From contig JAJTDQ010000005.1 of NCBI GenBank assembly GCA_021300505.1, positions 1-35,561 on the forward strand: a stretch of 35,561 nucleotides of DNA, written 5' to 3'. Each line of letters opens with the position of its first letter. Positions within the stretch are counted from its first letter, which is position 1. The translations under genes and the position numbers were made by a program. Below are positions 6,636-33,776 of this stretch, piece by piece. The notes below the pieces were generated by a model that ran no database searches, was not told the origin of the DNA, and was given only the letters and a program-made list of their open reading frames with translations. The stretch is from Cryomorphaceae bacterium. GTDB lineage: Bacteria; Bacteroidota; Bacteroidia; Flavobacteriales_D; Crocinitomicaceae.

Positions 6636-6650
6636 TCTTCTTAACCAAAA

Positions 6651-7127: not shown

Positions 7128-7152
7128 TTTTACGTTGTTTTTTCGTTTAACA

Positions 7153-8043: not shown

Positions 8044-8054
8044 TCGAAAAAATT

Positions 8055-11573: not shown

Positions 11574-11626
11574 TACTACACTTTACAAGTCGACAAATCC
11601 ATCTAAATCAATAACTTAAAGATTAC

Positions 11627-12913: not shown

Positions 12914-12921
12914 CTTGTAAT

Positions 12922-13713
12922 CTACATTATTTCCTGATGCATTTTGTCACGAACCACATGAAAAAGGTGCTTCCCATTTTCTGTGTACTTTTGTGAATTC
13001 AAAAAATTCAATTTTACTGTATTTTGCTCTTCCAACAGGGCCGATAACACCTTGTTCCTATCGACGCCTTGAAATGGTGACGTATAATTCAACCTTTCAT
13101 TTATTGGATACGGAATTTTCGCATTGGGATAGGTGATACTCACCTTGGGCTGGGAATGCGTAAATGCAAATCCTGTATAAGCTGCACGTGTAAATTCCTG
13201 AGTAGTTGGTTGCATCAATGCTCTCGTCAAACCCATCTTTTGATTCACAAGTTTGGTTGTATTTAAATCCAGAATTTTATCAACCGGAAGATGCAAAATC
13301 TTCTTTTTCTTGCCTTGCAAGGTATAAATGGTCATTTTGAAAGTCGGTCGCTTGCGGTTCACAACGGTATAGGCCCCATTTCCTTTCAAATTCTTCCCTA
13401 CTCCATCGATATCTACACGATAAGCTCCAGTTACTCTCCAAGTTAGTATGATGCTCCCCCCATTCAATAGAAAACCTTGATCATCGGGCAACTTATAATA
13501 CTCCTTCCCATTCAAGGTAACTAAATAATGGTCTGGCGTGATGTCAAATTCAAAGTCAAGAATTTTCCCTTTTTCTTTGCGGTACCAGAAGCCAATGCAT
13601 TTGTAAATAATGCCAAAATAGGGCATCAAACCAAGTACAAGCAAAACCACAATGAATAACAATACCCCTTGAAGCACACTTAAACTAGCAAACCATTTGA
13701 ACACTTCTATCAT
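12922..13713 (-). CDS. Hypothetical protein with N-terminal TM helix and beta-rich soluble domain
   Basis: TM 'VLQGVLLFIVVLLVLGLMPYFGIIY'; overlaps the next gene by 4 nt. Confidence 0.65.
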   Translation of the reverse strand: MIEVFKWFASLSVLQGVLLFIVVLLVLGLMPYFGIIYKCIGFWYRKEKGKILDFEFDITPDHYLVTLNGKEYYKLPDDQGFLLNGGSIILTWRVTGAYRVDIDGVGKNLKGNGAYTVVNRKRPTFKMTIYTLQGKKKKILHLPVDKILDLNTTKLVNQKMGLTRALMQPTTQEFTRAAYTGFAFTHSQPKVSITYPNAKIPYPINERLNYTSPFQGVDRNKVLSALLEEQNTVKLNFLNSQKYTENGKHLFHVVRDKMHQEIM

Positions 13714-14678
13714 ACGGCAACAGGATAAAATTCAAGATCAGAAACATCAGCCATCGGATAATCATCAGGAATATGCGGGGTAGTTGTCTCTATAAAATGA
13801 TATGTTTTTCCATTGTGTATTTTTGTCGATGTTCTTCTAAAGGGCATTCCCGCAACTGCAATGAACATATGCCCCCCCATTTCACCAGGAATATTCGGGT
13901 TTTCCATTTTACAGCTTACCAAAAGAATGTTGTCCTCTTCTATCAATTCCTTTAAAATTGACGCCATTAGTACGGATTTACTATCGCAATCACTGTAGCT
14001 CAATACAAATGATTCATAGGGCAAGGCCAGTTCTATATATTGAAATGGGGGGATCTCAAACTTAGGAATGCCATACGGCAAATGCTGTACAAAATTCTTT
14101 GCAGCTAACACTCTCGATACATAATCGTCTTTACCCAATTGCTGCAAATTCTCAACAATATGCGCTGCAATTTTAGCTGCAAACTGATTACTCAAATCAA
14201 CAACATAGGGATAATTCGTGTCAATAGTTACTTTACCATTGTTCGTTCTAATTTCAATACCTTTTAATGTATTCAAATCCTCAGTAGCTCCATATCCATC
14301 AATAACTTGTGAAACCTCAGTTGGATTCAAACAAACAGAAAAAGTCACGCTTTTACCTTTTATTATTGGGTATGTATAGCTTAAGTCAACATCTTGACCA
14401 TTGGCATTGATGCTTCCATCCACCTTGTAACCGAATTCATTAAAATTCTCTGGACCGTTTCTGTAATTTTTTCTAAATGTTTGGAGATGTTGTGTCAGGT
14501 GCTCGATAAGCAATAGATTGTTCTGGATTGAGGAAGGAACGTTTGTTGAACCGGTACCGTCAGGTGAATTCGGATCATTCGTAGAACTAGCAGCTCCTAA
14601 CAAATCAAAATTGCCATTAAATGCCAAATAAAATGACACAATTAGACATAAGCCCAGAATAGCAATTAGTTCATTCAT
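13710..14678 (-). CDS. Transglutaminase-like protein with N-terminal signal anchor (start revised to ATG at 14678)
   Basis: 'MNELIAILGLCLIVSFYLAF' anchor; 'YESFVLSYSDCDSKSVLMASILKELIEEDNILLVSCKMENPNIPGEMGGHMFIAV...IETTTPH' fits a Cys-His-(Asp) transglutaminase-like core. Confidence 0.65.
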   Translation of the reverse strand: MNELIAILGLCLIVSFYLAFNGNFDLLGAASSTNDPNSPDGTGSTNVPSSIQNNLLLIEHLTQHLQTFRKNYRNGPENFNEFGYKVDGSINANGQDVDLSYTYPIIKGKSVTFSVCLNPTEVSQVIDGYGATEDLNTLKGIEIRTNNGKVTIDTNYPYVVDLSNQFAAKIAAHIVENLQQLGKDDYVSRVLAAKNFVQHLPYGIPKFEIPPFQYIELALPYESFVLSYSDCDSKSVLMASILKELIEEDNILLVSCKMENPNIPGEMGGHMFIAVAGMPFRRTSTKIHNGKTYHFIETTTPHIPDDYPMADVSDLEFYPVAV

Positions 14679-14773
14679 AGTTAGTACTAACAAATATAAG
14701 TAATAATTAAAAAGTCCTTATATCCAAAACATTAATTTTCGAACTTCTCCAATTTAAATTTCTTACAACTAAA

Positions 14774-14809
14774 AAATCCCTAGCCATGGTGTTCCAAGAC
14801 TAGGGATTT
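14774..14809 (-). terminator. Probable intrinsic terminator of the minus-strand RT/MoxR/vWA operon
   Basis: Perfect 10-bp inverted repeat AAATCCCTAG...CTAGGGATTT with a 16-nt loop. Read on the minus strand the stem runs into GGGATTTTTTAG (T-tract). Confidence 0.65.
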
Positions 14810-14999
14810 AAAAATGTGGTGAAATTTTACTTTGGAACGCAATATTGCACTCTATTGTTGCGGAATCAAATTCTAATTAAACTTTATTGTTCGCCAAAGA
14901 ATAGGCGAGAATAATCACTGACTCTTTTCACGACAAGCGAATCGCTTGTCAAAAATGCTAAAATCTTTGCCACCACACTTGAGGCAAAAATAGAGAATT

Positions 15000-16205
15000 T
15001 TACTCAACACGAATGACCTTTCCAGGTAAATGATCCGTTTTTTCGATACCACCATAGACGCACCACAATACCGGCAATGAAACACTTTCTCTAGGTTCAT
15101 TGGCATACGCATCCGTGAAATAAATTAGGCCATTGTACATTCTGTGTCGTTTACCCCACCTCAAAACAGGATCAAATGAGGTCCCGCCCCCGCCCCTAGG
15201 CTTGGGCATTGCCATTTGATTGCGCACATCGTAAACATGATGAATTTCAGCATCGCACTCCACCACGGTAACGAGTGTTCCGGTCTTGGAAATTGCCATT
15301 ATCTCGTTCCAAAACTCCTGAAACAAGGTGTTATTAATAGAGCCTGAGGTATCTATGGCAACAACAATTTTTCTCAACCGTTTAATTCTCACCCCAGGAC
15401 TACCTTCAAAACGTCGACTTTCTTTACGTCTTGTGGTTCGCAATACGGTTTTACCACAGGCAGAATTGAATAGTTTTACCACATGTTTCCAAGAGATTTT
15501 TGGTGGAGCCAACATCCCTTCGATTTCTCGTCTTATTCCCGCTGGCAAGCTTCCCCAGAACTTCGCATCCGTTTTTTCTTGCGCTGATTTCAATATATTT
15601 TTTAAAGCTCTTAGTGCTTTCTCCGAATGAACAGATTCTTCATCCTTCTTGGACCATAATTCGTGCGATCCGATGCAACTCGACGTTTGATGGCTTTCAT
15701 CTTCGGAATTGAGCTTTTGAAATAATTCATAACTCTTTGGATATTTCTCCGCCGCATCTTCTTTTTTCAATTCCAAGAGTTTGTTGTAGTAGTATTCGAA
15801 ACTCTCTTGTTTGGTTAGGCACAAATCTGGAAAGGAACTTATCAAGATAGCACCCTCAGGTAATGGCCAAGGATCAACGTATTGATTCACTACCAAATCT
15901 GCAGCGATATTCTCTATTTTTGGAAATACGCCTTTGCCACGAAAAAGATGGCTAAAAACGAGGTGTAAAAGCTCATGCTTCAAAACGGCCACCCGCTCCA
16001 ATTCATTTAATTTCTCGCTTATAAAAGTTGGATTTACCCAAAGTGTGAATGCTACATCATTATACGAAACAGCCATTGTTGGCACTTTGTCACCAATTAC
16101 GCGTGTTAATCCGGCAAATATATGAGCATAAAAGGGTTCAGGCCTTAATAGCTTTACAGCACTGCGCGATAGTAGAAATTCAGCCTCTGTTGTGACGGAT
16201 TCCAT
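15000..16205 (-). CDS. DUF2201-type protein: N-terminal putative metallopeptidase (HELLH) and C-terminal vWA-like domain
   Basis: 'RVAVLKHELLHLVFSHLFRGKG' zinc-binding HExxH; 'KIVVAIDTSGSINNTLFQEFWNEI' MIDAS DxSGS; C-term 'LPVLWCVYGGIEKTDHLPGKVIRVE'. Confidence 0.85.
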   Translation of the reverse strand: MESVTTEAEFLLSRSAVKLLRPEPFYAHIFAGLTRVIGDKVPTMAVSYNDVAFTLWVNPTFISEKLNELERVAVLKHELLHLVFSHLFRGKGVFPKIENIAADLVVNQYVDPWPLPEGAILISSFPDLCLTKQESFEYYYNKLLELKKEDAAEKYPKSYELFQKLNSEDESHQTSSCIGSHELWSKKDEESVHSEKALRALKNILKSAQEKTDAKFWGSLPAGIRREIEGMLAPPKISWKHVVKLFNSACGKTVLRTTRRKESRRFEGSPGVRIKRLRKIVVAIDTSGSINNTLFQEFWNEIMAISKTGTLVTVVECDAEIHHVYDVRNQMAMPKPRGGGGTSFDPVLRWGKRHRMYNGLIYFTDAYANEPRESVSLPVLWCVYGGIEKTDHLPGKVIRVE

Positions 16206-16206
16206 C

Positions 16207-17355
16207 TTAGAGCATTTTCATAAACTGACCTAATATCTCTTTATTCGTGACCACATTGTGTATGACTTTTAGTGAAGGACTATTGCTCAACTTGGCCTTT
16301 ACCAAATCGAGGTGAAAACCATACCTTAAATCAACCGGAATCTGATTTGACAATAATACATGAGCAAGTACTTTTTCAGCATTCTCAGTCGGTTCAAAAT
16401 TTTCCGACTTAAGCTTTAATACCACACGATAGAGTAACGTATTGATCAAGTCCAAACGAAGCCCTTTCGTTGTTTGCATCAAGTTGCCGATGGTTGAGTC
16501 TAAAGTCTGTGTATTGCTTTCGTCTAAGAACGATTCAGGTGAAGGCAATTGACCAAGACTATCCTCAATAAAGGTGATAAATGTATCCGCCACCTCTTGG
16601 TCGAGGCATCCTTTAGCAAGAATCTCAACAAGGTGAATATGTTGCTTTAAATCAGGAATTTGCTTTGTTTGACCAAAAAACTGAACCAAGGTACGTGGCG
16701 TAGTTCTTTTCATTGTCACCATTTCCGGGTAAGTCAACACAAAATTCACACCTCTTGCATCGATTCCCGCACCCAAGGCCCATTCGGCCCAAGCTTTCGC
16801 ATCGAATTTCAACGTTACGTGAATCATTCTTGTCAACATGGCCTCATCCATTGGGGTAACAGAGTAGTCTCCTGAATCCGGGTTGGCGGTAGCAATGATT
16901 TGCCAATTGGGTGGCAAGGACCACGAGAACATTTCAAAATTCTGAAGCAACTGCATGGTTCCTCTCAAAATACGGTCATCCGCTCTATTGATGTCATCCA
17001 ACAACAAAATTCCTGGGCCTGGATCTGTAGGCACCCATTCTGGTGGCAAATACACCGTTCTTTCATCCCCCACCACTGTTGGATCTGGATCAATTTTAAA
17101 GGGAAGTCCATGCAAATCACCCATCTCCTCAAATTGAGCAGGAGCACAATACGCCACTTTCCATTGTTTTTCTCTGGCCACTTCCATGGCAATCTCCGTT
17201 TTTCCCAAACCATGTGTACCCCAAATACAAATTGGAGTTGGTCTTCTTCCTGTATTGGCTTCAAACTGAAGATTAGATTCTAGAATACTATCTAAGAAAT
17301 CCACCAACCTTTTACCATCAATCGAAGCACCAAAACAACCGTCATTTTTACTCAT
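16207..17355 (-). CDS. MoxR-type AAA+ ATPase
   Basis: Walker A 'IWGTHGLGKTEIA', Walker B 'GILLLDDINRAD', sensor-like 'WQIIATANPDSGDYSVTPMDEAMLTRM'. One nt upstream of the vWA gene and 4-nt overlap with the LRR gene. Confidence 0.9.
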   Translation of the reverse strand: MSKNDGCFGASIDGKRLVDFLDSILESNLQFEANTGRRPTPICIWGTHGLGKTEIAMEVAREKQWKVAYCAPAQFEEMGDLHGLPFKIDPDPTVVGDERTVYLPPEWVPTDPGPGILLLDDINRADDRILRGTMQLLQNFEMFSWSLPPNWQIIATANPDSGDYSVTPMDEAMLTRMIHVTLKFDAKAWAEWALGAGIDARGVNFVLTYPEMVTMKRTTPRTLVQFFGQTKQIPDLKQHIHLVEILAKGCLDQEVADTFITFIEDSLGQLPSPESFLDESNTQTLDSTIGNLMQTTKGLRLDLINTLLYRVVLKLKSENFEPTENAEKVLAHVLLSNQIPVDLRYGFHLDLVKAKLSNSPSLKVIHNVVTNKEILGQFMKML

Positions 17356-18626
17356 AAGCTACGAATATACATTCTATTATTCATTAACATTCTCTTGTCA
17401 TCAATCTTCAATTGATTGCCCCTCAAAAACAATTGAGTATGGATTCTGCTCAAATCATGCTCCTCTAGTTGAACGTCTTGTATTCTGTTGTCTTCTAAGT
17501 TTAAGCGAGATAGATTCACCATTTTCAATAGTTCACTTGGAATCGTATGGAGTAAATTTTCACTTAAATCCAAATGAACCAACGTAGAAAAATTGCTCAG
17601 GTCTTTCGGAAGGTGTTCTATGTAATTTTTAGACACATTGATCACTTCAATGGCAGATAATGGCGAATCGAAATCGAGCTGAGTAAGTTTATTTTCAGTC
17701 AAATCAATTTCCATCAAACTATCACCAGCCGCACCAAATTTGGGCAAACAAGTTAGCCTATTACTTCTTAGGCTAACTACAGAAAGCTGAGATAAAGCAC
17801 TAAGGTCAATCTCTTCTATTCGTTGATGGGACACATTCAGTTCCCTGAGATTTACTAGTTCTTGAATACCCCTCGCATCCCCAAGCTTACCATCAACAAT
17901 GTGTAGCGATGATAAATTTCGCTTTGGAAGCAGTGTAAAGTCGAATCTCTCTAAAGGAATTGATTCCAACTTGAACGCCTCCAATGTTTGGTATTGCATA
18001 TCGAAAGTAGGCTGAGTTGTCAACTCGCAGAAACTAAATTCTAGATTTCTTAAGCCATGCATTGCACTTAGATCCTCAGGCAGAATATCACCCTTAACGT
18101 TCTCGAAAATTAATTCCTCAACATAAGGACTTTTGTACAGAGAAGCTGTCAGCTGATAATCTGATTTCACATTTTTAATCTTTATACTTTTTAGTTGTTC
18201 TTGGCATAGTTGAAAATCCAATGGAAAAAGCACATCGATCAACTCTATGTCAAGGATTTCCACTTTTTGAATGGCCAACGCTTGAATGATTTGATACAAC
18301 ACACCCTTAGGACATTCCGTTAACAACAAGGGTAAAATCAAGGTGTTTTTATCGACTAAAAATTTTAATTCACAGGCGCGCAATCCGAAACGAATATCCG
18401 CAGGCATAGAACCATCTGCCCCAAAGGACAAAAGTGCCAATTGAATCATTTCAATTTTGTCAAGAAACAAATTCCTGTCCTGATCAGAGACAAAAGGGTA
18501 GGTTCTATGCCAAAGTGCGTCCGTTTCCTCCACCGAAAACAGCGAAATGAAAAGTGAATTTTGATCCCAATTTCTAAGATCAAGTATTAATTCTAACAAT
18601 TTAGATTCATTGTCCGCTGTGTCCAT
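17352..18626 (-). CDS. Leucine-rich-repeat protein
   Basis: Repeats 'LSVVSLRSNRLTCLPKF', 'LMEIDLTENKLTQLDF', 'IEVINVSKNYIEHLPKDLSNFSTLVHLDLSENLLHTIPSELLKMVNLSRLNLEDNRIQDV'. Confidence 0.9.
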   Translation of the reverse strand: MDTADNESKLLELILDLRNWDQNSLFISLFSVEETDALWHRTYPFVSDQDRNLFLDKIEMIQLALLSFGADGSMPADIRFGLRACELKFLVDKNTLILPLLLTECPKGVLYQIIQALAIQKVEILDIELIDVLFPLDFQLCQEQLKSIKIKNVKSDYQLTASLYKSPYVEELIFENVKGDILPEDLSAMHGLRNLEFSFCELTTQPTFDMQYQTLEAFKLESIPLERFDFTLLPKRNLSSLHIVDGKLGDARGIQELVNLRELNVSHQRIEEIDLSALSQLSVVSLRSNRLTCLPKFGAAGDSLMEIDLTENKLTQLDFDSPLSAIEVINVSKNYIEHLPKDLSNFSTLVHLDLSENLLHTIPSELLKMVNLSRLNLEDNRIQDVQLEEHDLSRIHTQLFLRGNQLKIDDKRMLMNNRMYIRSL

Positions 18627-18637
18627 TAAACGCTTGT

Positions 18638-21600
18638 TTACTTTTTAATATCCTCTCGAATCTCAATTGTTCGATCTAACTTCTTACACAATTCTCGAAG
18701 CTCCTTACCCATGCTGTCAAATTCATTAAAGTGGCTAACATCAATAAAATTCAACTCCAGACAATGTTCAATAATGGTTTTAAAATGCTCCGGCATTAAA
18801 AAGTTCGAGCAGCGGGCATAAAGTTTTTTCAGTTTTGGGAACTTTGAGCAAAAGATGTTAATGTCTCCCAAGTTACTGGCGTTCAGACCGTCAAAGTACA
18901 GCTCTTCACAAGACGGAAATAGTGGGACATTGGCAATGTTAAAAAATCGAGTGAAGGATAATTTCAAGGTCTTTAAATTGGGCATTGAAGGCAATGTCAA
19001 AGGCTGAGACAACTTCAAATAGGATAAATCCAAGCAAACACAATCCAACGCAGCCTCATCAGATATATTCAAACTCATGTAGAACCCATTGGCGTTAAAA
19101 TACTTTTTCTCTATGGCATACTTCACAAAATAGTCGTAATATTTAACGCTCATACCTGCTCTATTTCCTAGAAAAAATGTGAACAATTCTTGCTCAATCG
19201 ATTGTAAATCAGATAATTTTGAGTGTTCATTTCCCTCATGAACAAATGTATACATACCCTTCGTGTCATAGGAAACTCTCCTGTAAATTTGATTCAAGAT
19301 GTAATACAAATCTTGTGCTGCATACTTTTCAGTCAAATAATTCGCCACAGCTGGAAGCACCGCATTTTTCCTTCTTTTTTCCTCTCTAATCGTCTGATTT
19401 AAGAAAACAAGAATTCTCAAGCTTCGCTCAAGTGCTGCAAGTACAAAGGAAGAATTCAATTTGAGACTTGGATGAGCAAGAATAAAACTAAACGGATTTC
19501 CATAAATTGCTGCCAGCATGATTTCTTCATCCTTAAACATTCTTCTCGAAAGCTTGAACGGATCGATCGCTCCTTGTTTCAAGTTAGCCAATAGATCCTC
19601 CCTATTCAACGAACCTATCATTGGATCATTGGCGTGTTGTTTCCGTTTAATGACATACTTCTTTCTCAAAATGGATGGCAAAACTTGCAGCCTCTTAGCA
19701 GCATCGTCATACAGCATTGGGAAGATGGAGATTCTGTTCAACTGATTCATTTGGCTCAGATCGTATTTGGTAGAAGAATGAAAAACAGAAAATTCCGTCC
19801 TCCCCTCCGACATCCTTTTTAGAAGTCCTGTTTCCTCATTTAAAACTAGACTATTCCTATACTCCGAAACAACCCTGAACATCGTTCGAAACGGCACACT
19901 TAATTTATACACATCGTATTTTAAACTATACCCGACCAAAGGGAAATTGAAGAAGGTTTTGGATTTGCCTAATCCAACAATTTTATTGTAGGATCTGCCT
20001 TGCGATTGCGCAACACCTTTGAATGCTTTTGACCCAGGAAATAAACTGAGAACATTCCCCCGTCTAACACTCCTTTTTTCGTTATTCGCACAAACCAGCA
20101 CAAAATTTTCAACATGAAATTGCTTTGTGGGTAAAATGTCAAAAAGCACATTTGTTTCTTGCTCGAAAAGTAAAGAATTGAGTGGATAAAAAATCGTTAA
20201 ATTTTGAAATTGACCATTCGAAAAATAATCTGATGGACAGGCTCCTCGAACACCAATAATCTTTAGTAGAAGATTTGGACGATGATAACTTTCAGATGTA
20301 GCAGGTAAATCCGTTACTTGAATACCAGGATGGAGTAAATGGTATTTTTCAGGTTTGACATTAAAATTGCCGTTAAAAACCAAATTTGGCAGCCATGAAA
20401 AATCAATAATCAAGGAATGTATGCAGTTTGATTGTAAATGTTCAGGATAGAAAACGTGTTTTTTTGAAAGCAATTCTGCATCTATCGGATCAACAAACAA
20501 TTCACTTTGGCTTTGATCAAGTCCGACAAATTCGTTTAATTCCAATAAACTAGATAAGTGAAAGACTTCAGCGTTCTTTAAAATGGTCAGTCGGTTTCTT
20601 AAATCTTCATGAAAAGGTTCAAAAAGTATGGATAATGTTTCTAGACCTTTAACTTGATTTAATCGCTCGAATAAACGGGTACTTTCTATTTTATTTGAAC
20701 CGATTTGAACCGTTACTTGCAGTGCAACAACTGTAATTTGTTGTTGAATTAATTGATCTAATTCTTCGTCTGAATCACATCGATAGAACATCAATTCTAA
20801 CGCATTTTCATACAATTCAGAAAAATCAAGCGTTGGTAGTTCAGGCGCATCAAGGGTAAATTCGTGTAGCCTTGGAATCAGTTTTTTGATCGGAACCACC
20901 ATATCCACCAACTTTGTATTTTGATGCAAAATCAAATGTTTAACACTTGAAGGCAGCAAATTAACATCAAAATTCTCTAGCTCATTGTTGCTTAAATCAA
21001 TTCTATTTACCGGGGCTAATTGTTCCAAGTCAATCGATGTCAACTTATTATTTGCCAACAGAATGGACGAAGATTGCCAGTTTATCAACACATTGGATGG
21101 AACTGATGCTATACCCAAATTACCTAAATCCGTGGAATGCTTTGCGGTAGAAACCGAATTCCAAAAATGAACGGACAAATCAATAGTTTTCAGTTTCGCT
21201 TCGATATTTAACGAACGAACTAGTCGCAATGAAAATGCGGATGAATACGTTTGTGTTTTTCTGTATAAACTAAATAACCGAGGATAGAAATGTCCATCGC
21301 CGTCCGATACCGTTCCGCTTAATGAAAGGAAATCATTCACGGGGATGTAGCCAGACGTCCTACTACATTTTTTGAAACGACGATTCAATGATGCTTTATA
21401 TCCTCCTTTTTTTGGTAAAAAGAGAAATACATTTCTTCCGAGCCTCGTGTTGGATTGAGACATATGGGGCAAATGGGTCATACTCGACGTCCAGTAGGCT
21501 GCGACTTTATTGAATGCTCGTGCATGTGTAATTGAATTGAAGAACCCATTGTACTGTGGATCCATAGGAATGCGTAACCCTAAACGTTGACGGTCTTCAT

Positions 21601-22996
21601 ACAGCGTTTCCTTCAGGTACAATTCAAATTCGTCTGTACTTGGTAGACGCCAACCATCATTTAATTTGGAGACAATTTCTATCATCGAGGCCTCTGTATA
21701 CAGCGTACGGTTTTTTCCCCATTTACTCAGTTGCACAAGCCCCTCTGTGGCTGTTCCAGACTGTTCGACTGCCAATTCATCTTCCTTTTTCCATTCAACA
21801 TCTCCAATGATGGTGAATTCTTGAGTATTTAATTTTGCCGCAAGTGCCTCAACAGATTCGATGTAATCAACCGCTTCAGTGATTTTCTTATTGGCTTCAC
21901 AAAACCGAATGATGATGCTCAATTCTCCAAAATAACGATGGAATTCGGCATTGGCTTTCTCCACAGATAGAACCCAGGAAATTTCACCTTTGATTTTTTG
22001 TAAATATTTAGGCCTTGTTGTTTTGAGCTTTTCAATGTGTTCTTCCCCAAATTTTTTCAAATAATACATTTGCTGACGCAGACCGCGCTTCAATGTTTTT
22101 GGTACTGATTTTTTCTCATTGACCACTACACCAGTAACAATTTGACGCTGATGCTTACGCAATACACGCGTCTTTGTCCTATTCAACTGCAGCTGTTCCA
22201 GTTTAATTAGTCGATTTATTGTCCCTAAAACGGCTTGTGGTTTAAGTTTATCTTTAGATCCAGAAACCGTAATGTCATCCGAATAGCGCGAGTAATTGAG
22301 TCCATTTCGAATGCAGTAATCGAGGAAAAATTTATCAAAACGAACGAGATAGTGATTGGCTAAAATTCCACTTGTCGGACTTCCCTGAGGAAGAAAACCA
22401 TTCAAAGAAATGACATTAACCAGCTTTTTACTGAGTTTCGTTAATTCAACCAGTTTCTCTTCCTGTGATAATTCCCTAGCCAGGATGCCTAGTTGATATA
22501 AGTAATGTGATTTTGTCGACAATAAATTCAACCAAAATGGAAGTAGTTTGTCCGTTTTAACACTGCCAAAAAAATCCTTGATATCCAATTTCATTACCAG
22601 CTCATTCGCGACATGAAAATTGGCATTGCGAACCACTGAAATTCCAGGTCTATACGCGACAGCACAATCCCGCAAAATAAACTTGTTCACTTTACGTGGG
22701 TAGCGTCGATTTTTCCACTCCTTATTTTCGTTTGTATAGATAAATTGCAACAATTGACCTTGCACCTCTTTCAAAACGGGCTTTGGCTCATGCAATATCC
22801 TCAGCTTACCGTTTTGTTTTTTAATTGTGTGTTTTGTGTAAAACTCTTCCGTAAGCGGTCCATCTATTTCTAACTGATGAACTAAACAAAGTGCATTAAA
22901 CGTGGGCAAATTGGGTATGTTATCGAATGACAATACCTCCTTACCTAAATCCTGATAATTAACCAGACTCACTTGACTCACTCTTCGCACCCTCAT
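18638..22996 (-). CDS. Retron-like reverse transcriptase fused to a Fib_succ_major/C-type-lectin-like domain and LRR-like segments
   Basis: RT motifs: 'VVRNANFHVANELVMKLDIKDFFGSV' (NAxxH and motif A), 'FLPQGSPTSGILANHYL', 'YSRYSDDITVSG' (YxDD), 'IVTGVVVNEKKSVP' (VTG). CLec-like: 'GWRLPSTDEFELYL...VAAYWTSSMT...SSAFSLRLVRSL'. LRR-like: 'VNRIDLSNNELENFDVNLLPSSVKHLILHQNTKL' and C-terminal 'NLKTLKLSFTRF...LKKLYARCSNF'. Confidence 0.9.
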   Translation of the reverse strand: MRVRRVSQVSLVNYQDLGKEVLSFDNIPNLPTFNALCLVHQLEIDGPLTEEFYTKHTIKKQNGKLRILHEPKPVLKEVQGQLLQFIYTNENKEWKNRRYPRKVNKFILRDCAVAYRPGISVVRNANFHVANELVMKLDIKDFFGSVKTDKLLPFWLNLLSTKSHYLYQLGILARELSQEEKLVELTKLSKKLVNVISLNGFLPQGSPTSGILANHYLVRFDKFFLDYCIRNGLNYSRYSDDITVSGSKDKLKPQAVLGTINRLIKLEQLQLNRTKTRVLRKHQRQIVTGVVVNEKKSVPKTLKRGLRQQMYYLKKFGEEHIEKLKTTRPKYLQKIKGEISWVLSVEKANAEFHRYFGELSIIIRFCEANKKITEAVDYIESVEALAAKLNTQEFTIIGDVEWKKEDELAVEQSGTATEGLVQLSKWGKNRTLYTEASMIEIVSKLNDGWRLPSTDEFELYLKETLYEDRQRLGLRIPMDPQYNGFFNSITHARAFNKVAAYWTSSMTHLPHMSQSNTRLGRNVFLFLPKKGGYKASLNRRFKKCSRTSGYIPVNDFLSLSGTVSDGDGHFYPRLFSLYRKTQTYSSAFSLRLVRSLNIEAKLKTIDLSVHFWNSVSTAKHSTDLGNLGIASVPSNVLINWQSSSILLANNKLTSIDLEQLAPVNRIDLSNNELENFDVNLLPSSVKHLILHQNTKLVDMVVPIKKLIPRLHEFTLDAPELPTLDFSELYENALELMFYRCDSDEELDQLIQQQITVVALQVTVQIGSNKIESTRLFERLNQVKGLETLSILFEPFHEDLRNRLTILKNAEVFHLSSLLELNEFVGLDQSQSELFVDPIDAELLSKKHVFYPEHLQSNCIHSLIIDFSWLPNLVFNGNFNVKPEKYHLLHPGIQVTDLPATSESYHRPNLLLKIIGVRGACPSDYFSNGQFQNLTIFYPLNSLLFEQETNVLFDILPTKQFHVENFVLVCANNEKRSVRRGNVLSLFPGSKAFKGVAQSQGRSYNKIVGLGKSKTFFNFPLVGYSLKYDVYKLSVPFRTMFRVVSEYRNSLVLNEETGLLKRMSEGRTEFSVFHSSTKYDLSQMNQLNRISIFPMLYDDAAKRLQVLPSILRKKYVIKRKQHANDPMIGSLNREDLLANLKQGAIDPFKLSRRMFKDEEIMLAAIYGNPFSFILAHPSLKLNSSFVLAALERSLRILVFLNQTIREEKRRKNAVLPAVANYLTEKYAAQDLYYILNQIYRRVSYDTKGMYTFVHEGNEHSKLSDLQSIEQELFTFFLGNRAGMSVKYYDYFVKYAIEKKYFNANGFYMSLNISDEAALDCVCLDLSYLKLSQPLTLPSMPNLKTLKLSFTRFFNIANVPLFPSCEELYFDGLNASNLGDINIFCSKFPKLKKLYARCSNFLMPEHFKTIIEHCLELNFIDVSHFNEFDSMGKELRELCKKLDRTIEIREDIKK

Positions 22997-23006
22997 TTAT
23001 TCAAAA

Positions 23007-24218
23007 TTACTTCGAATTTACTCTTTGCATGGTTATGTCCACTATCATCCAATCATCTAAATACCCCACAAAATCAAGTCTATCATCTATGGCGTCAATT
23101 TTGTGCAAAAAATAGGACAAAGTCCAATCAATCACGTCTGCATTTTGGTCATCCCTAGCCTCAAGTAAAAGTACTATTTGATTTTTTAAAGTCTGTTGAA
23201 TATCATGGATATATTCCTCCATGACCAAAGCGCTAAATTTTTCTTGCAATTCCAAATATGGAAGCCTATCTGGACAAATATCGGACAGGAAACCAAGATA
23301 GTGCTCGTCTTCATATTCGTACAATTTATAGAAATCAGAAAAACTAAATTTTGTTGATTCTAAAGGATTTAATTGACTAAAAAACGAGAACATCCAATCA
23401 GCCTGAAACTCAATTTTGTTTGTATGATAGTATTTAAACAGGTAGGTAATCCACTCAGAAACATCGATATCAAAGGCTATTTTCAGAAGTTCATTGTGTT
23501 CTGCTGAGCGATTATTTGGATACAGGTTATTTACAACATCCCGCATAATCAAACCCGCATAGTCTTGAAGATGATTACAAATCTCACCAAATCTTTGATA
23601 TGAGGTTTGTCCATTGATTTCAGATTCACAAAAGGAGATCAAGTAGTGAAAATCTTCTTTAAATTGAGTCAGATAACGACCATTCACACGTGGACTATCC
23701 GAAAAATAGAGGTATTCGGCATACATTGCTACACCTTCATTCCGTAAACTCGAAATATAATGCATAAAAATCCAAAAATTACTGGACGTCTGTGGAGATA
23801 TGAATGTTTGATTTTTACGCGTAAGGTATACCGACCTAGATTCACAAATCACTTGATGATCCAAGGCATGAATCAATTCATGAAGTACGGCTTTTTGAAT
23901 TTCAATTTTATTTAGAGTTAACTGATCATCTCCTAACCAATTAGAAACGATTTGATTAAAGCAAATTTCAAAATACCTTGGTGATGAATTTTGCGCATTG
24001 TACATTGCAATCCATTCGTTTGGAAATGAATTTGCCGGAAGAAAATGAATATCTATTTCCAAATCAGGATGAAGAAAAGAGGAGAAATGCTCTAAAAAAT
24101 AAGTGAACTCTTCAACTAAAAACGCTTCCAATAAAAGGTGTTTATTCTCTTTTGGGAAGTCTTCATTTTCATGTAAAGCGTTGGTAAACCTATATTTCGC
24201 CAAACTATTTTTTATCAC
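23007..24218 (-). CDS. Putative zincin metallopeptidase
   Basis: 'KAVLHELIHALDHQVI' HExxH motif (encoded at 23856..23882); first gene of the minus-strand operon, 10 bp before the RT gene. Confidence 0.65.
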   Translation of the reverse strand: MIKNSLAKYRFTNALHENEDFPKENKHLLLEAFLVEEFTYFLEHFSSFLHPDLEIDIHFLPANSFPNEWIAMYNAQNSSPRYFEICFNQIVSNWLGDDQLTLNKIEIQKAVLHELIHALDHQVICESRSVYLTRKNQTFISPQTSSNFWIFMHYISSLRNEGVAMYAEYLYFSDSPRVNGRYLTQFKEDFHYLISFCESEINGQTSYQRFGEICNHLQDYAGLIMRDVVNNLYPNNRSAEHNELLKIAFDIDVSEWITYLFKYYHTNKIEFQADWMFSFFSQLNPLESTKFSFSDFYKLYEYEDEHYLGFLSDICPDRLPYLELQEKFSALVMEEYIHDIQQTLKNQIVLLLEARDDQNADVIDWTLSYFLHKIDAIDDRLDFVGYLDDWMIVDITMQRVNSK

Positions 24219-24334: not shown

Positions 24335-24958
24335 ATGAACAATTCGGTTAATTCAGAAAATGGAATACTTTGGGTCGGTGACAAAGCACTTGAAACGTAT
24401 TTGAACACAGACAAAAATGTATTGAAAGCGTACACGAATTATTTATTATTATTCGATTCAAGTTACTCGAAGACAGATCGTGAAGTGACGTATTTGAGTG
24501 ATTTTGAAGAATCGGGTAAACTTGATTATGACTCCAACCAGCTATCGGAACCCATTCAGAAGTATTTTTCAACGATTGAAAACAAGAAAATTGATTTAAT
24601 GATTGGCAGTTCGTATGAACTACTTTTTCAAAAAATCATTGATATGGCGAAGGAGGTGAAATCGAGAGAAACGGTCAAAAACGACAAGGAGGAATATCAA
24701 TTGTTTTCGTTTCAACATTTCAGAAACAGAACGGAAACCGAATTTGATTTTTCAGCAAAAGACACCCTATTCTTAGAGCAAAACATTCCCTTCAAGGATA
24801 TGATTTCCGATTCAAAGAATACCATAAAAAAAGCGAAAAAATCTTATCGTAATGTTTTAACGACAAAGAAAGACATTGCTGAGATCAATGAGTTTTTATA
24901 TCGTTTTAGTGAGATGACTGGCGATGTAAGCAACTGTACGGATGTCGAAATAATATAA
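24335..24958 (+). CDS. Hypothetical protein preceding the sigma factor
   Basis: 207-aa ORF starting with ATG, 15 bp upstream of the sigma-like gene, same strand. Confidence 0.6.
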   Translation: MNNSVNSENGILWVGDKALETYLNTDKNVLKAYTNYLLLFDSSYSKTDREVTYLSDFEESGKLDYDSNQLSEPIQKYFSTIENKKIDLMIGSSYELLFQKIIDMAKEVKSRETVKNDKEEYQLFSFQHFRNRTETEFDFSAKDTLFLEQNIPFKDMISDSKNTIKKAKKSYRNVLTTKKDIAEINEFLYRFSEMTGDVSNCTDVEII

Positions 24959-24973
24959 TAACGAAACAAAGGG

Positions 24974-25546
24974 ATGAATAGGAGATTACTTTTTACAGAA
25001 TTAATTCGGAGACATGAATCAAACATCCGTAAAACGATCCGTGTGCGCATCAAAAATAGCATGGATGCGGATGACGTTTTTCAGGACCTATCTATGCACA
25101 TCCTTGACAAAATTGAGCGTGAATCAGAAGACCAATTGTCAAAATGGGATTCAAAAAGTTGGATGGCAACAGTGACCATCAATTATTGTTATTCTGTATT
25201 GCGAAAAGTGACATCGAAAAAGAGCCGTCGTATGACCGATTTGCCGGATGACGAAACACTTGAACGGAAGGCTTACCAAAAAGGAGAGGCTGGTATGCAT
25301 CAAGAAGATCCTTCGCGCAGTGTAAAACATTTCCAAATCGATGATATCCTATCCTTGCTGAACGAAAGAGATCAAACGATTATCATCCTTAAGCTTTTCG
25401 AAAATCGGTCAATGGAGGAAATTGATGAAATTACAGGCTTGACCAATAGTTCTCAATATTACAAAAGAGCAATTGAAAAGATCCGCACTAAAATTGATGT
25501 CGATGGATTCAAGGACCAATACGACGACTTTTTCTTTGATGATTGA
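24974..25546 (+). CDS. Sigma-70 family (ECF-like) RNA polymerase sigma factor
   Basis: Region-2-like 'DADDVFQDLSMHILDKIE...WMATVTINYCYSVLRK' and region-4-like 'LNERDQTIIILKLFENRSMEEIDEITGLTNSSQYYKRAIEKIRTKI'. Confidence 0.8.
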   Translation: MNRRLLFTELIRRHESNIRKTIRVRIKNSMDADDVFQDLSMHILDKIERESEDQLSKWDSKSWMATVTINYCYSVLRKVTSKKSRRMTDLPDDETLERKAYQKGEAGMHQEDPSRSVKHFQIDDILSLLNERDQTIIILKLFENRSMEEIDEITGLTNSSQYYKRAIEKIRTKIDVDGFKDQYDDFFFDD

Positions 25547-25550: not shown

Positions 25551-28109
25551 TTAATTTTTTAAGTCGATCCCGACATCTTTTAAATTCGAATGCTTCCCTG
25601 TGGAATAGGAAATAAAATGCTTGGTGCCGTTTTCTTTCCGTTCACTGAACAAGTATGCTTTGCCATTATTCACCTGAATAAAGTTCTCCAGATTCCAAAT
25701 CTCATTAACCTCTTCATCTTGTATGTACCAATACATCTTATTCAATACTAGCTTCTCTGAAATTTGCTTGATTTCAGTGGATATCTTTTCCAATTCAATC
25801 AATTCAGCATCCTTTAAATAAGGATTTAGGTACTTGTTTCTATCCTCCCATTGCTCGGGAACCATGGTAATCACTCCACCCGTTTTGTAGGATAGAGCAA
25901 CAACATCATTTTTCTCCGTCTTTACCAGGTTGACCATATTCCCGGGGAAGAGCGAAAATTGATTCAATAAATGCAAAACAATCACTTCTAATTCAACATA
26001 TACCTCGAAATCAACCTTTGTCATTGCGCCATGACCTCTGGTCTTATTCCTTACACTCGTAATGAAGTCCAAGAAGGTTTGAATAGTCACTTTTCCTTTT
26101 AATGGTCTTTTCGCATTTTCGCCTATCGTTAAATCTAAAAAAGCAAAGTCACTCAAATGATCAAATTGACACAAACCGCTAAGCGGAAAATGTAAAAAAT
26201 CATAGAGCTGTTTTGCCAAAATTGAAGTATTTTCTTGATGATTGAACTCATTCATCCAGAATCTCAATCTGCTCATGATTGCACCAAAAGAAACCTGATT
26301 AGGCATTTCCGTGTTCTTATTTTTTTTGTCCTCAGAAACCATCCAGAAAGGCTCTCCAGTCACTTCATTTTTAGCATAGAGAATGGCCATACAATAACAA
26401 CTCAAAATTTCGCACAGATTGATAATTTCCATGAATCGTGTTGAGGGAGAAGGATCCTCATGCATCTGTCGAAAAATGGTTGACAATTCATGAATGCCTT
26501 TCTTTGAAATCGTTTTCACTGCATCAATTTCCGCTTGTTGAAACACAAATTTCAATAAGTAATGGTTGTGTTTGCTCCCCTCCAATGAAAGTTCGATATT
26601 GATCTTTTCTTCTAAAGGCAAGCTCATTTTGTTTGCTGCATCATTTCTTATCAATAACTCATCTGTGCTGGCAATCTTCTCATAGGCGGCCTCCATCTGA
26701 AGTCGAATTCTATCCAATGACGTACTAAGCAAATAACCTTCCTTTTCTTTGGTTGCCAAAAGCACGTCAAAATCGAAAAAATCAATACAGCAATATACAT
26801 TTTGCAAAGATTGATTCAACTGGTATTCAGTTATCGAAAGCACCTCCTCATCCAAGCCTGTTTCCAATTTTAGATGGTCATGGACAAAAATAATGTTGCG
26901 CACATTTTGGTTGCTGATTTCCGTTGTTGAGAAAGTAGATTTATACAGTCTGTAATGAAAGGAAAATGCATTAAGCACGATCAAATCATTGGATATTCCA
27001 TTGAATAACGACTCCAATTTACTAAAAATAGTCGTGTTCTTATTTGGATTTACGTATACCACCCTTCGGTACAGCCTTAACGCAAGTTTATTAAATTTCA
27101 CACGAGCAGATGGATCGACAATGAGGTAAAAATTGTTTGTTTCATCAAACTTTCGCGCACGCTGTTTTCTGAGTAAAATCATAAGAATGACAAAGAGTGC
27201 AGCTATTGGCACAATGACTTCAACCTCTCTGGAGAAAAAAGCAATTGTCGCCAGTATCGCGCCCAGCAAAATTCCGATATATTCGAATGGCACTCCGTTG
27301 GTATCGAAATAGCTAATTTTTGAGCTCGTCAAAGCAGAATAACCATCTGTAAAACTTAATTTCCTTAGGTAAACAAAGAACAAATGGCACCCAATCAGAG
27401 GGATAATAAATGAAAAATCATCGATAGTCATCAACATCAAAGCGGTCATTAACTTGTAGAAAATATCGATGTATTCGTGGCTTTCCCGTATGGAGAGGAG
27501 CTCGACCGTAAAATACCTACGGTTATAAAAATTGTTCGTGTCGGGGATATTGATTGGCGCAAAGAAGAGCACTTTTATTCGAAGTAAAAGCAGAACAAAG
27601 GTGATTGACAATGAGAATTTTACTATCCATGAATCGAACATGGTAATACCCAATACAAACAGCATTCCTATCGTCAGTAAATCAAAAAAATCCCTGAAAT
27701 ATAAAATCAAGTTGGTTCGTCCGAAGATGATCGGAATCGATTTTAGTAGAAATCCAAAAACAATGATGAGAAAAATATACGTTTTCAACTCATAACTCAC
27801 AGGAGTGTAAAAGAGAAAAATCAAATTACTCAATAAATCAACAGCAAACTTTGGTGCTTTAAAGACCAGCTCTTTGCGCCAAAATGTTTTTTCAATCAAT
27901 TGAAAATCAGGCAAACTTGCTAAATCATTGATATACTCAACAGTAGTGAATTTGCGGTAGACAGCGTTAAACCAAAGATGTACGAGGACCCAAACCACCA
28001 CAAACCACAATGGGTTAATGAGATGGATTAGTTGATTAAAACGTTCTGTAACGTAATGCACATCATTCCAAAATTCCATTTCCAAAGCACATTTAAATTG
28101 AACCATCAA
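25551..28109 (-). CDS. Large membrane protein with multi-TM N-terminal half and C-terminal soluble half containing a HEPN-like RNKTRGH motif
   Basis: Hydrophobic helices across aa about 30-310; 'FLDFITSVRNKTRGHGAMTKVDFEVYVELEVIVLHLL' (motif encoded at 26028..26051). Confidence 0.65.
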   Translation of the reverse strand: MMVQFKCALEMEFWNDVHYVTERFNQLIHLINPLWFVVVWVLVHLWFNAVYRKFTTVEYINDLASLPDFQLIEKTFWRKELVFKAPKFAVDLLSNLIFLFYTPVSYELKTYIFLIIVFGFLLKSIPIIFGRTNLILYFRDFFDLLTIGMLFVLGITMFDSWIVKFSLSITFVLLLLRIKVLFFAPINIPDTNNFYNRRYFTVELLSIRESHEYIDIFYKLMTALMLMTIDDFSFIIPLIGCHLFFVYLRKLSFTDGYSALTSSKISYFDTNGVPFEYIGILLGAILATIAFFSREVEVIVPIAALFVILMILLRKQRARKFDETNNFYLIVDPSARVKFNKLALRLYRRVVYVNPNKNTTIFSKLESLFNGISNDLIVLNAFSFHYRLYKSTFSTTEISNQNVRNIIFVHDHLKLETGLDEEVLSITEYQLNQSLQNVYCCIDFFDFDVLLATKEKEGYLLSTSLDRIRLQMEAAYEKIASTDELLIRNDAANKMSLPLEEKINIELSLEGSKHNHYLLKFVFQQAEIDAVKTISKKGIHELSTIFRQMHEDPSPSTRFMEIINLCEILSCYCMAILYAKNEVTGEPFWMVSEDKKNKNTEMPNQVSFGAIMSRLRFWMNEFNHQENTSILAKQLYDFLHFPLSGLCQFDHLSDFAFLDLTIGENAKRPLKGKVTIQTFLDFITSVRNKTRGHGAMTKVDFEVYVELEVIVLHLLNQFSLFPGNMVNLVKTEKNDVVALSYKTGGVITMVPEQWEDRNKYLNPYLKDAELIELEKISTEIKQISEKLVLNKMYWYIQDEEVNEIWNLENFIQVNNGKAYLFSERKENGTKHFISYSTGKHSNLKDVGIDLKN

Positions 28110-28238
28110 AAGTATTCAATTTACTTTCTAAACATGTTCAAGAATAATAAAAACTGTTTCTTGATTTTGAACAAATTATCGCCTTAAATTAAATATATTT
28201 AATGCCTAGAAAAAGTTGTTAATAGTAACCTTTATAAA

Positions 28239-31200
28239 ATGAATACAGCTCAGGCAAAAGGCAAATTTAATCTCAAAGAAATACTTGGAAAGAAAGCGCT
28301 ACACCTTACCATTATTTTGACAATCATCGGTGTACTTGTGGCTTTGTTTTTTCACATTAAAAATTCTGTCAATGAACAATTGGTCAGAACTCAACTTGAA
28401 AAAGAAACGCCATCCGAAATTTTAAATCACGCGAATACACTTTATTGGTTAGGGAGAACATACGGAAACACAACCCATGAGTTTGAAAAGTCCGAAAAAC
28501 TTGCTCTTCGTGTTAAAGAAATGTTGGCAGGAAAGAACGATTCCATAAGTACGTTAACACGCATCAAGGCGGATAAAATCATTTCCAACTCTAAACACAA
28601 TAGAGAACAAAACGCGTTAACAGTTAACAACAAATACCCCTATTTCCTAGACTTCGCAGGACTCAATGAGTTACCTGAAGAAGACCAACCATTGGAAGAA
28701 ATGGATCGTGTAACAACGATTCGCGTATTAACGAAGCTCTTGGATTTACCAGAACAAAATTCATCACGGCCATTGCGTGACTACCCCTACTTCAGTATTT
28801 TAGTACACAACACCAACGACGCACAACTTCATGAGGCGGGCATCCAGTACCTCAATTTAACCACCAAACAGTATACTATTTCCGAACATGAAATTGCACA
28901 AATTACTGGCGTGAAAAATTTCAAGGTAGAGCAAATCTTAAAAGACACTATCAATGTTCGCAAGATTTGTGATTTTTTCAATTGCAGTGAGTTGGCGATC
29001 ATCAATGTAAACAAGCAAGATCAGTACGATGGAATTTACTACTATGGTGCAAATATTCGCCTCATTTCACCAAACAGCAACGAAGTAAAAGTCTCTCGAT
29101 ACACAGAAGCCTTCACTACTGCCAGAGGATACAATGCCATGCTTGGCATTAAGATTCCCCTTCTCATTTCTTACCTTTTGCTCCTCATTTTAGGGGTTGA
29201 ATTGCTCTCGTTACTCAATCTTTTCGCCTATTCTCGAATCAAGTGGCATCGCTTTATTCTCGTAGGGATCATATCCATGGTCATTAACATTGTTTCGATA
29301 GAAGCACTTGCTTATTTTTGGAACCCAGCATCGGGTGAATTTGCTGAAACAGACAAGGCGATGGTCTGGATATTTGCGGTAGCCTTGAGTTTTACACTTA
29401 TTCCAATAATCATAGGTCATCTCACAGTTGGTAAATTGGACCGATTTATCAGTTCTTTTGATTCAGGCTTGGATGATAAAAATGGGCTGTTCAGCGTTAT
29501 TTTCCCAGGATTAACAGTATATTCAATTTCAATAACGTATTACAACCTACTGCGTTTTGGCATTTCCGAAGACCTCTATTTTGCACTGTACGCCTTTGCT
29601 TACTCCGTAGTACTATCTTACCTCTTGAGTTATTATTGGAAAAAGGTGAAAGAGCTTCCATCCAAGTCATTTTTATTTCACCAAATTTCCGTTTACACAT
29701 TACTTGGGATCATTGTCCTTTGTGCGATCTTATTTCCTTACTCAACATTCGGGAACTTAGATCCATCCAACACATTGAATGCGTTTATTCTCTTTGTTTG
29801 CATTCCACTATTTCTATCCTTAATGAATGAAATCATTCTAAAAGTCTATTTTTCGAAACATACGAGTAGTGAATTGCAAAAAACAATTGATATTGACAAT
29901 ATTCATTACGTCCCAAGTCTTTTTGAGGATGAGATGCGCGGCAACTTGAAAGATCAGGGTGTTTTAGTCTTGTATGGCGCAAAAAAAATGGGGAAAACAT
30001 GGCTTGCAAAAAAGATAGCTGAACGTTTGTTGACTGATAACACATATGATAATTTGGTGTATATTGATTTTTCTTTGTCTCAATCAGAAGAAGAAAAAAA
30101 CAAAATCAACTATTATCCTTTCGCGGAAGGATTTTCGCATCTTTTGCCTAAAAATGTTTTCAATGACCAAGCGGAAGAGGCAAGAAAATCAGGGAATATA
30201 TTGGGGAAGCTAATAAGTTCAATTACCTCTGCAGGTGATTTTCTAGTAGACGAAAGTGAGTCAAAGCCTGCAGAATTGTCGAAAATTCGAAAAATAATCA
30301 CAGATAAAATTAGTGAGCACCCGCAAACATTAATTGTGTTCGATAATATCCATGTGGCGCAAGGCGACAACAAAGAACTATTCCTATCCTTCGTCAATGA
30401 GATACACCGCATCAATGTAGAGAATAAGAAGGATTCGGAACAAAAAAAATACCCGCTTCTGCTGTTCACTTCGACTCAAGGTTTTCATTTTAAGCGTGAA
30501 TTCGAAAATATTATCGAGGGACTTATCAATGCTAGAAATTCGAAACAGAATGCGACATTTAAACTGGAGGATAAAATTATCGCACTTTCTCAAGAACAAA
30601 ATTGCCCGCCTTTTTATACGATCTCGTCTGATCCACAATTTTTGAACAAATACCTTAACAAATTTAATATTGGAATTTTTGACCGGAAAATCATTTTGGA
30701 AAAATTCAAAAAATCAGAAAAAGATAAAGCGCCAGGTCTAGTAGCTGAAATACTAAAGTCCCTCGACGACCTTCAACAAATATCTATAAAGGACAAAACA
30801 ATAAAAGTTAGGCACCACGACTTTGAAATTCCTGACATCGTTGAGGAGTTGGACTTTTTCGAACAGGTTGTTAAGACACTGAGTCCTGAGCTGATCGATA
30901 TCTTGCGCTGCTGCGCCTACTCCGCGATGGACGATGGTGAATTTGAGGTAGCAGCAATTAGCTTCATTCTGGAAAAGAAACGATTGGATATTCTACATCA
31001 CTTGAATATCGCCGAAAACTTAAATATCGTATACGACACCAAAGACAAAAATGATTGGTACCGATTTAACGATGTTCGATTTATCATGGTACTAAAAAAA
31101 CAAGATAGTCAAGGGATAAACCAGTTATTTTCTCAGCTTGGCAAGGAATATTACCTAAGGTGGGTGAATTTCTATTTTGAGCATTTCGAAGACTTAAAAA

Positions 31201-33074: not shown

Positions 33075-33079
33075 GTAAC

Positions 33080-33430
33080 ATGAAAAAGGAAAACAATAAA
33101 TACGAAGAGATCGGAAAAGATGTCATTGAATATGTCGATACCCGAATTGAACACACTAAACTCCAATTCATCGCGAAAACGATTGAAATTGGGTCCTATA
33201 CATTCAGTTCGCTTATTATTATCCTTTTGTTCTTGGTATTTTATTTTTGTTTAGTATGTGGAACTGCACTTTGGATAGGTCATTATTTAGGTGCACTGCA
33301 CATTGGTTTTTTCATCATTATGGGGATTCATTTGTTCTTTTTGATTTTACTTATTCTGGTGAAGAAATACTTGGTTGAAATACCATTACAGAATAAACTC
33401 ACTCGGATCATTTTCAATTCTAAAAAGTAA
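33080..33430 (+). CDS. Holin-X/DUF1469-like small membrane protein
   Basis: 'YVDTRIEHTKLQFIAKTIEIGSYTFSSLIIILLFLVFYFCLVCGTALWIGHYLGALHIGFFIIMGIHLFFLILLIL' resembles DUF1469/holin-X proteins of Bacteroidota. Confidence 0.6.
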   Translation: MKKENNKYEEIGKDVIEYVDTRIEHTKLQFIAKTIEIGSYTFSSLIIILLFLVFYFCLVCGTALWIGHYLGALHIGFFIIMGIHLFFLILLILVKKYLVEIPLQNKLTRIIFNSKK

Positions 33431-33433
33431 AAC

Positions 33434-33763: not shown

Positions 33764-33776
33764 TTACACAATTATT

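What the first reader, a model, noticed from the sequence alone, without database searches (positions are those of the whole stretch)
18638..22996. 1452-aa fusion of a retron-like reverse transcriptase, a C-type-lectin-like (Fib_succ_major) domain and LRR segments
Seen directly: RT motifs at 22613..22627 (NANFH), 22367..22387 (QGSPTSG), 22274..22285 (YSDD) and 22130..22138 (VTG) in the N-terminal ~340 aa. About aa 395-595 (21212..21814) matches the Fib_succ_major pattern GWRLPS..EF / AYWTSS / FSLRLVRS. LRR-like stretches follow, including the extreme C-terminus. Established: CLec folds are the usual targets of diversity-generating retroelements (DGRs), and LRRs are common recognition modules. 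Having a recognition-type fold on the same chain as an RT is unusual. Inference: the CLec/LRR parts sense a ligand and gate RT activity, or the RT product modulates the sensor.
Basis: partly seen in the sequence, partly recalled or inferred. Interest (0 to 1): 0.88.

Follow-up and report, generated by a model that had tools for sequence, protein, structure and literature searches.

The report
Retron fused to sensor domains
Lake bacteria carry an apparent virus-defence system in which a retron reverse transcriptase, an enzyme that makes a small DNA copied from RNA, is welded to recognition-type domains and sits in one operon with an ATPase and a protease-like protein, a combination I found in no paper or database here.

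Summary
The 1452-aa fusion is real. Four further Flavobacteriales MAGs encode it full length at 34-37% identity, with every domain under purifying selection. The RT is a retron RT (NANFH, QGSPTSG, YSDD, VTG; best PADLOC model RT_III-A, E=1e-73), not a DGR RT. C-terminal parts: a CLec-like domain (Lcl_C/Fib_succ_major; weak but shared by 4 of 5 members), N- and C-terminal LRRs, and a DUF4116 domain in all five.

It has the retron msr-msd anatomy (a1/a2 ends that differ in sequence between loci, AGC, covarying hairpin), occurs only in the five fusion genomes among 197, and resembles the msr just upstream of the sister solo RT. The operon is [HExxH protein, in two genomes]-RT fusion-LRR-MoxR ATPase-DUF2201 metallopeptidase/vWA-msr/msd. 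The MoxR-LRR-vWA trio also occurs without RT.

Best reading: a new retron architecture in which RT-msDNA plus CLec/LRR sensors control a MoxR-vWA protease module, probably anti-phage. No activity has been shown.

The parts
23007..24218 (-). 403-aa HExxH protein (HELIHALDHQ), putative zinc metallopeptidase; possible accessory, first gene of the operon
   Evidence: Homologue (32% identity) in the same place only in L048; absent next to the fusion in L049-L051. HExxH conserved in both copies. No Pfam family.
18638..22996 (-). 1452-aa fusion: retron RT + CLec-like + LRR + DUF4116 + LRR
21887..22909 (-). Retron-type RT domain (aa 30-370) with NANFH, QGSPTSG, YSDD and VTG, all conserved in 5 of 5 except at single positions
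   Evidence: PADLOC RT_III-A 1.4e-73; PDB retron RTs are the best hits by sequence and fold; tree
21209..21814 (-). C-type-lectin-like domain of Lcl_C/Fib_succ_major type (aa 395-596)
   Evidence: weak, below Pfam cut-offs
20837..21163 (-). N-terminal LRR stretch (aa 612-720)
19391..19531 (-). DUF4116 domain (aa 1156-1202)
   Evidence: all five members; best 1.7e-8
18761..19045 (-). C-terminal LRR stretch (aa 1318-1412)
17352..18626 (-). 424-aa LRR protein
   Evidence: LRR_8 1.9e-12; orthologues at 30-33% in all five operons
16207..17355 (-). MoxR-type AAA ATPase (AAA_5), Walker A GTHGLGKT and Walker B LLLDD intact
   Evidence: (67-71% identity in the other operons)
15000..16205 (-). DUF2201 protein: N-terminal putative metallopeptidase (KHELLH) and C-terminal vWA-like domain with MIDAS DTSGS; likely effector
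   Evidence: DUF2201 2.5e-16, DUF2201_N 2.6e-12; motifs conserved
14812..14980 (-). Predicted msr-msd RNA of the retron: a1 14970-14980, AGC 14957-14959, msr hairpin 14932-14950, msd-side hairpin about 14835-14873, a2 14812-14822
14771..14808 (-). Intrinsic terminator-like hairpin with T run, ends the operon
   Evidence: Sequence and conserved covarying stem

Best explanation
This is a retron of new architecture built into a MoxR-vWA conflict module, most likely an anti-phage system. Shown by sequence: the operon ends in a conserved msr-msd-like RNA; the RT is an intact retron RT; it is fused to CLec-like, LRR and DUF4116 modules; the operon also encodes an LRR protein, a MoxR ATPase and a DUF2201 metallopeptidase/vWA protein. 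Inferred: the RT makes msDNA from the downstream RNA; the RT-msDNA complex and the fused CLec/LRR arms form one sensor that keeps the MoxR/metallopeptidase-vWA pair inactive; phage damage to the msDNA, or a phage ligand bound by the arms, releases it; MoxR remodels the vWA protein with ATP and its protease domain acts, stopping growth or killing the infected cell.
For: Retron identity: NAxxH and VTG, RT_III-A best of all PADLOC models, retron structures the best PDB hits by sequence and fold, and a tree in which the five fusion RTs form one clade (100/97) sister to a solo retron RT (100/99). RNA: conserved and covarying (7 of 24 pairs change on both sides; 3 of 500 shuffles reach that); a1/a2 ends complementary but different in sequence in W, L048, L049 and L051; model R1 hits only the five fusion genomes of 197, each time right after the vWA gene; a similar msr with long a1/a2 lies immediately upstream of the sister solo RT. 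Unit: RT fusion-LRR-MoxR-vWA in the same order in all four loci that span it, and on two contigs in the fifth. All domains under purifying selection (dN/dS 0.13-0.39). Catalytic motifs of RT, ATPase, HExxH and MIDAS intact. Two loci lie next to restriction genes: GmrSD pair in L049, type IV mREase in L051. The MoxR-LRR-vWA trio exists without RT in L060 and Chondrinema, so the retron looks like an added controller.
Against: No msDNA, phage protection or toxicity has been measured. The RNA is downstream of the operon, whereas the standard place is upstream of the RT (PMC6868368). The a1/a2 helices of L048 and L049 taken alone are no longer than chance. The upstream-msr match in the sister retron is weak by score (15.4 bits, E 0.19). 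Which protein is the effector is a guess, and the direction of control is borrowed from other retrons. Only five genomes, all MAGs.
Confidence: 0.62

Rival explanations
1. A retron RT and its RNA are present and make msDNA, but the MoxR-LRR-vWA genes are an independent system that has merely been joined; the fusion is a retron with its own sensor or effector in the C-terminal arms.
For: MoxR-LRR-vWA occurs without RT in L060 and Chondrinema. In Retron-Sda1 a self-sufficient system replaced the type III effector and the RT was not needed for defence against the phage tested (PMC12548924).
Against: Same order and tight spacing in all four spanning loci despite 34-37% protein identity; the msr-msd lies beyond the vWA gene, so the trio is enclosed between RT and RNA.
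Confidence: 0.2
2. A diversity-generating retroelement: the RT diversifies the CLec or LRR parts.
For: CLec folds are the usual DGR targets, and DGR-diversified CLec proteins occur with MoxR and vWA genes (PMC10907252).
Against: No TR/VR repeat; retron motifs; low dN/dS including the CLec domain; best models are all retron RTs.
Confidence: 0.02
3. The downstream RNA is a regulatory 3'-UTR element or another RNA, not the RT's template, and the RT works template-free or on another RNA, as in some DRT systems.
For: Position downstream of the operon is unusual; no Rfam family matches.
Against: AGC at the start of the conserved part, a1/a2 pairing, and similarity to the msr upstream of the sister solo RT; strict co-occurrence with the fusion.
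Confidence: 0.12

Closest known systems
Type III-A retrons (RT_III-A; PRTase and winged-helix partners)
   Same: RT best matched by the RT_III-A models; structured msr with AGC and a1/a2 ends.
   Different: No phosphoribosyltransferase or winged-helix gene; RT carries about 1080 extra residues; RNA at the 3' end of the operon. In Vagococcus the PRTase, a small gene and the RT are separate genes.
Retron-Sda1 (III-A1 RNA and RT with HipA/DUF3037; PMC12548924)
   Same: A type III-like retron in Bacteroidota whose usual effector is replaced by another predicted defence module.
   Different: Different module (MoxR/DUF2201/LRR), and here the RT itself is fused to recognition domains.
RT-fused retrons: Ec67/Eco2 RT-Toprim (I-C), RT-protease (XI), RT-TIR (XII)
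   Same: A retron RT with a C-terminal extension on the same chain.
   Different: Those extensions are single enzymatic effectors by their model names; here CLec-like, LRR and DUF4116, no recognised enzyme, and the enzymes are separate genes.
MoxR-vWA (VMAP) ternary conflict systems, including those with DGR-diversified CLec sensors (PMC7159879, PMC10907252)
   Same: MoxR ATPase + vWA protein + CLec-type fold + protease domain + reverse transcriptase in one locus.
   Different: RT is a retron RT, fused to the CLec-like part; no DGR repeats; no VMAP or trypsin-like protein seen; vWA protein is of DUF2201 type with its own HExxH domain, a family not mentioned in PMC7159879.

Membership tests
Retron | RT with NAxxH in region X and VTG in motif 7 / region Y, YxDD core | tested here: met
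   NA-F-H, VTG, YSDD aligned and conserved in 5 of 5; features as given in PMC6868368
Retron | msr-msd RNA with a priming G in AGC and self-complementary ends | tested here: met
   prediction only
Retron | msr-msd upstream of the RT (standard cassette) | tested here: not met
   RNA is downstream of the last gene in W, L048, L049, L051 and L061; 11 nt or less between HExxH gene and RT in W and L048, 23 nt in L049
Retron | RT-DNA (msDNA) produced | not testable with these tools
   Needs cells
Type III-A retron | RT of the III-A clade | tested here: met
   RT_III-A 1.4e-73, next non-III-A/Ec107 model 6.4e-51; the deeper forks of the tree are weak
Type III-A retron | PRTase and winged-helix partner genes | tested here: not met
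   No such gene in the operon; so filed as retron, not as type III-A
Diversity-generating retroelement | Template/variable repeat pair | tested here: not met
Diversity-generating retroelement | Hypervariable CLec target | tested here: not met
   dN/dS 0.215 for linker+CLec and 0.39 for its most variable part, one pair of genomes
MoxR-vWA (VMAP) ternary system | MoxR ATPase plus vWA protein | tested here: met
   AAA_5 1.7e-6; DUF2201 2.5e-16
MoxR-vWA (VMAP) ternary system | VMAP protein with peptidase, cyclic-nucleotide or adapter domain | tested here: inconclusive
   No such Pfam hit in the operon; no VMAP profile was at hand, so only 'works like', not 'is a'

The most novel reading that the evidence does not exclude
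A previously undescribed class of defence system in which retron msDNA, an RT-borne CLec/LRR receptor and a MoxR-driven vWA metallopeptidase form one machine: a reverse-transcribed DNA used as tripwire of an ATP-dependent proteolytic conflict system.
Probability: 0.5. Interest if true: 0.88.

Novelty: new variant of a known kind. Interest (0 to 1): 0.77.

Why it matters
It would join two lines of bacterial immunity so far described apart: retrons, which guard toxins with reverse-transcribed DNA, and MoxR-vWA conflict systems, whose CLec sensors are diversified by another kind of RT. It suggests that RTs have been coupled to the same ATPase-vWA-CLec logic twice. It also shows that a retron RNA can sit at the far end of a multi-gene operon, where searches limited to the region upstream of the RT would miss it. 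Both claims can be tested in E. coli.

Tried and rejected
DGR: no repeats, wrong RT, low dN/dS. Assembly join: rejected by four further MAGs. msr-msd upstream of the RT or operon: no room in W, L048 and L049. Rfam for a known RNA: nothing but an unrelated SAM riboswitch in L050. Phage or plasmid origin: no full-length relative in viral contigs, phage or plasmid records, only RT-domain matches. AF2 for the CLec fold: five-sequence alignment too shallow, region not modelled; the C-terminal model is poor in the middle. Relatives of the C-terminal part outside the family: none in 396 genomes of the phylum. Hits to the C-terminal part in other proteins of the order mostly cover DUF4116 alone. Papers combining retron with MoxR, von Willebrand, LRR or C-type lectin: nothing describing this; the library lacks most subscription papers and the main retron classification paper.
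Full report
What was checked. The window lies in a 2.4 Mb, 174-contig MAG, 85% complete. The 1452-aa ORF is open from end to end and the motif coordinates in the finding are exact. tblastn over 197 genomes of the family finds four full-length relatives (G152, G132, G189, G142). One scan of all GTDB species genomes returns the same four records, lake MAGs labelled Flavobacteriia or Flavobacteriales. None was found in 396 genomes spread over the phylum, viral contigs, phage records or plasmids. Identity to the window protein is 34-37% over the whole length, 46-49% in the RT, 28-30% in the CLec segment and 30-34% after it. Between the closest pair, L050 and L051, dN/dS is 0.13-0.39 in every segment. 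The fusion is therefore old, kept and not an artefact.

What the RT is. The best PADLOC model is RT_III-A (1.4e-73), then RT_Ec107-like, with all other retron types well behind; the relative L051 gives the same order. NAxxH, VTG and YSDD are conserved in all five; [quoted passage not shown] The best PDB matches by sequence are retron Ec67, Ec86, Ec78 and others, and by fold retron Eco2, Eco7 and Ec86 (the RT part of the model has pLDDT mostly 60-90, the overall model is poor). In a tree of 31 RTs the five fusions form one clade (100/97) whose sister is a solo RT of the same family, G139 (100/99); deeper forks are weak.

What is fused to it. The CLec-like segment has the pattern GWRLPT..E(F/Y)..., AYWTS......RLVRD. 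Four of five members hit Lcl_C (PF07603; best 1.3e-4) and three hit Fib_succ_major (best 9.4e-4), always below the curated cut-offs. Profile-profile comparison to Lcl_C gives E 3e-6 over a short stretch. I treat the CLec assignment as likely (about 0.8), not proven. LRRs flank a long middle region. DUF4116 is present in all five (best 1.7e-8, above cut-off in two). Its function is unknown.

The operon. On the minus strand: 403-aa HExxH protein (in the window and L048 only), RT fusion, LRR protein, MoxR ATPase, DUF2201 metallopeptidase/vWA. The order fusion-LRR-MoxR-vWA is the same in W, L048, L049 and L051. In G132 the fusion and the other three genes are on two contigs (L050, L061). MoxR is 67-71% and vWA 53-58% identical to the window's, while LRR is 30-33%: a conserved engine with fast-changing recognition parts. 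Walker motifs, HExxH and MIDAS are intact. MoxR, LRR and DUF2201 also stand together without any RT in L060 (G163) and on a Chondrinema plasmid, where the order is vWA-MoxR-LRR-LRR. L059 (G124) shows MoxR followed by the start of another gene, cut by the contig end. So the trio is a module of its own that met a retron in this lineage.

The RNA. The intergenic stretch after the vWA gene folds strongly in all four loci first examined and aligns with 68-75% mean column identity. It begins 20 nt after the vWA stop in the window. Anatomy: a1 (14970-14980); AGC (14957-14959); a perfect 8-bp hairpin with apex CGA(G/T)TCG; a second, looser hairpin; the conserved block GAATTRGAATT; a third hairpin; AAAGTA; a2 (14812-14822); then a terminator hairpin with T run (14771-14808). 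The a1/a2 pairs are AAGTGTGGTGG/TCACCACATTT, GCCGTGT/GCGCGGC, GCGCGG/CCGCGC and ATGGTTGTGT/ACACAACCAT: different letters, pairing kept, although two of the four are individually within chance length. Of 24 pairs in the model, 7 show changes on both sides (3 of 500 shuffles reach that), and sliding the partner by 1-3 columns drops paired cells from 86% to 35-44%. These are only four distinct, related sequences, so the statistics are modest. The covariance model R1 hits exactly the five fusion genomes of 197 (the model was built from these five, so the informative part is the absence elsewhere). With filters off it finds a weak match (15.4 bits, E 0.19, second in rank in 16.5 kb) immediately upstream of the sister solo RT of G139. 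Inspection shows TTAGCA, an 8-bp hairpin with the same CGATTCG apex followed by TTG, and a 17-bp a1/a2 helix. This is the standard upstream placement, so the fusion lineage appears to have moved its RNA to the 3' end of the operon. No Rfam family matches.

How it probably works. Shown: the parts, their conservation and their order. Established elsewhere: retron RTs with msDNA hold effectors inactive until a phage trigger (PMC12548924 abstract). In MoxR-vWA systems, PMC7159879 and PMC10907252 propose sensing followed by MoxR-driven activation of a protease or other effector, in the second paper with CLec proteins as antigen sensors. Inferred: here the retron complex and the CLec/LRR arms are the sensor, MoxR the ATP-driven switch, and the DUF2201 protein the likely effector. 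Context agrees with defence: GmrSD-type genes flank L049 and a type IV methyl-directed restriction enzyme flanks L051. No activity has been tested, and the effector assignment is the weakest step.

Classification. It passes the sequence tests for a retron except for the place of the RNA. It passes the RT test for type III-A but fails on the PRTase/winged-helix partners, so I file it as a retron of a new architecture, not as III-A. It resembles MoxR-vWA ternary systems in logic, but VMAP membership could not be tested. It is not a DGR.

Noticed in passing
L060:3323-8341 and L128:6668-13341: MoxR-LRR-DUF2201 (vWA/metallopeptidase) cassettes without an RT, one in a Flavobacteriales MAG and one on a Chondrinema litorale plasmid, where one LRR protein also carries a BRCT-like stretch. 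A possible conflict system of its own.
   Followed up: partly
L027:7708-8987: Solo retron of G139, sister to the fusion RT, with an upstream msr-msd having a 17-bp a1/a2 helix and no obvious effector gene beside it.
   Followed up: partly
window 25551-34949: Large uncharacterised genes: 852-aa protein without Pfam hit, 1611-aa protein with an AAA/STAND-like NTPase domain, small membrane proteins and a CbxX-type AAA protein, possibly another NTPase system.
   Followed up: no
window 4346-14693: Block of minus-strand genes with DUF4407 and OmpA domains and several proteins without Pfam hits; the first ones are syntenic with L048.
   Followed up: no
window 24335-25546: A sigma-70-like factor with a short partner gene, divergent from the operon and conserved in the same place in L048.
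   Followed up: no
L001 (G000:C136): A second, distant retron-like RT (391 aa) in the same genome.
   Followed up: partly
PHROGs phrog_1314: The window's DUF2201 vWA protein matches a phage family labelled 'HNH endonuclease' at 5e-61 over its whole length; the label looks doubtful for a metallopeptidase/vWA protein.
   Followed up: no
L050:1654-1746: SAM-I/IV riboswitch (Rfam RF01725, 55 bits).
   Followed up: no
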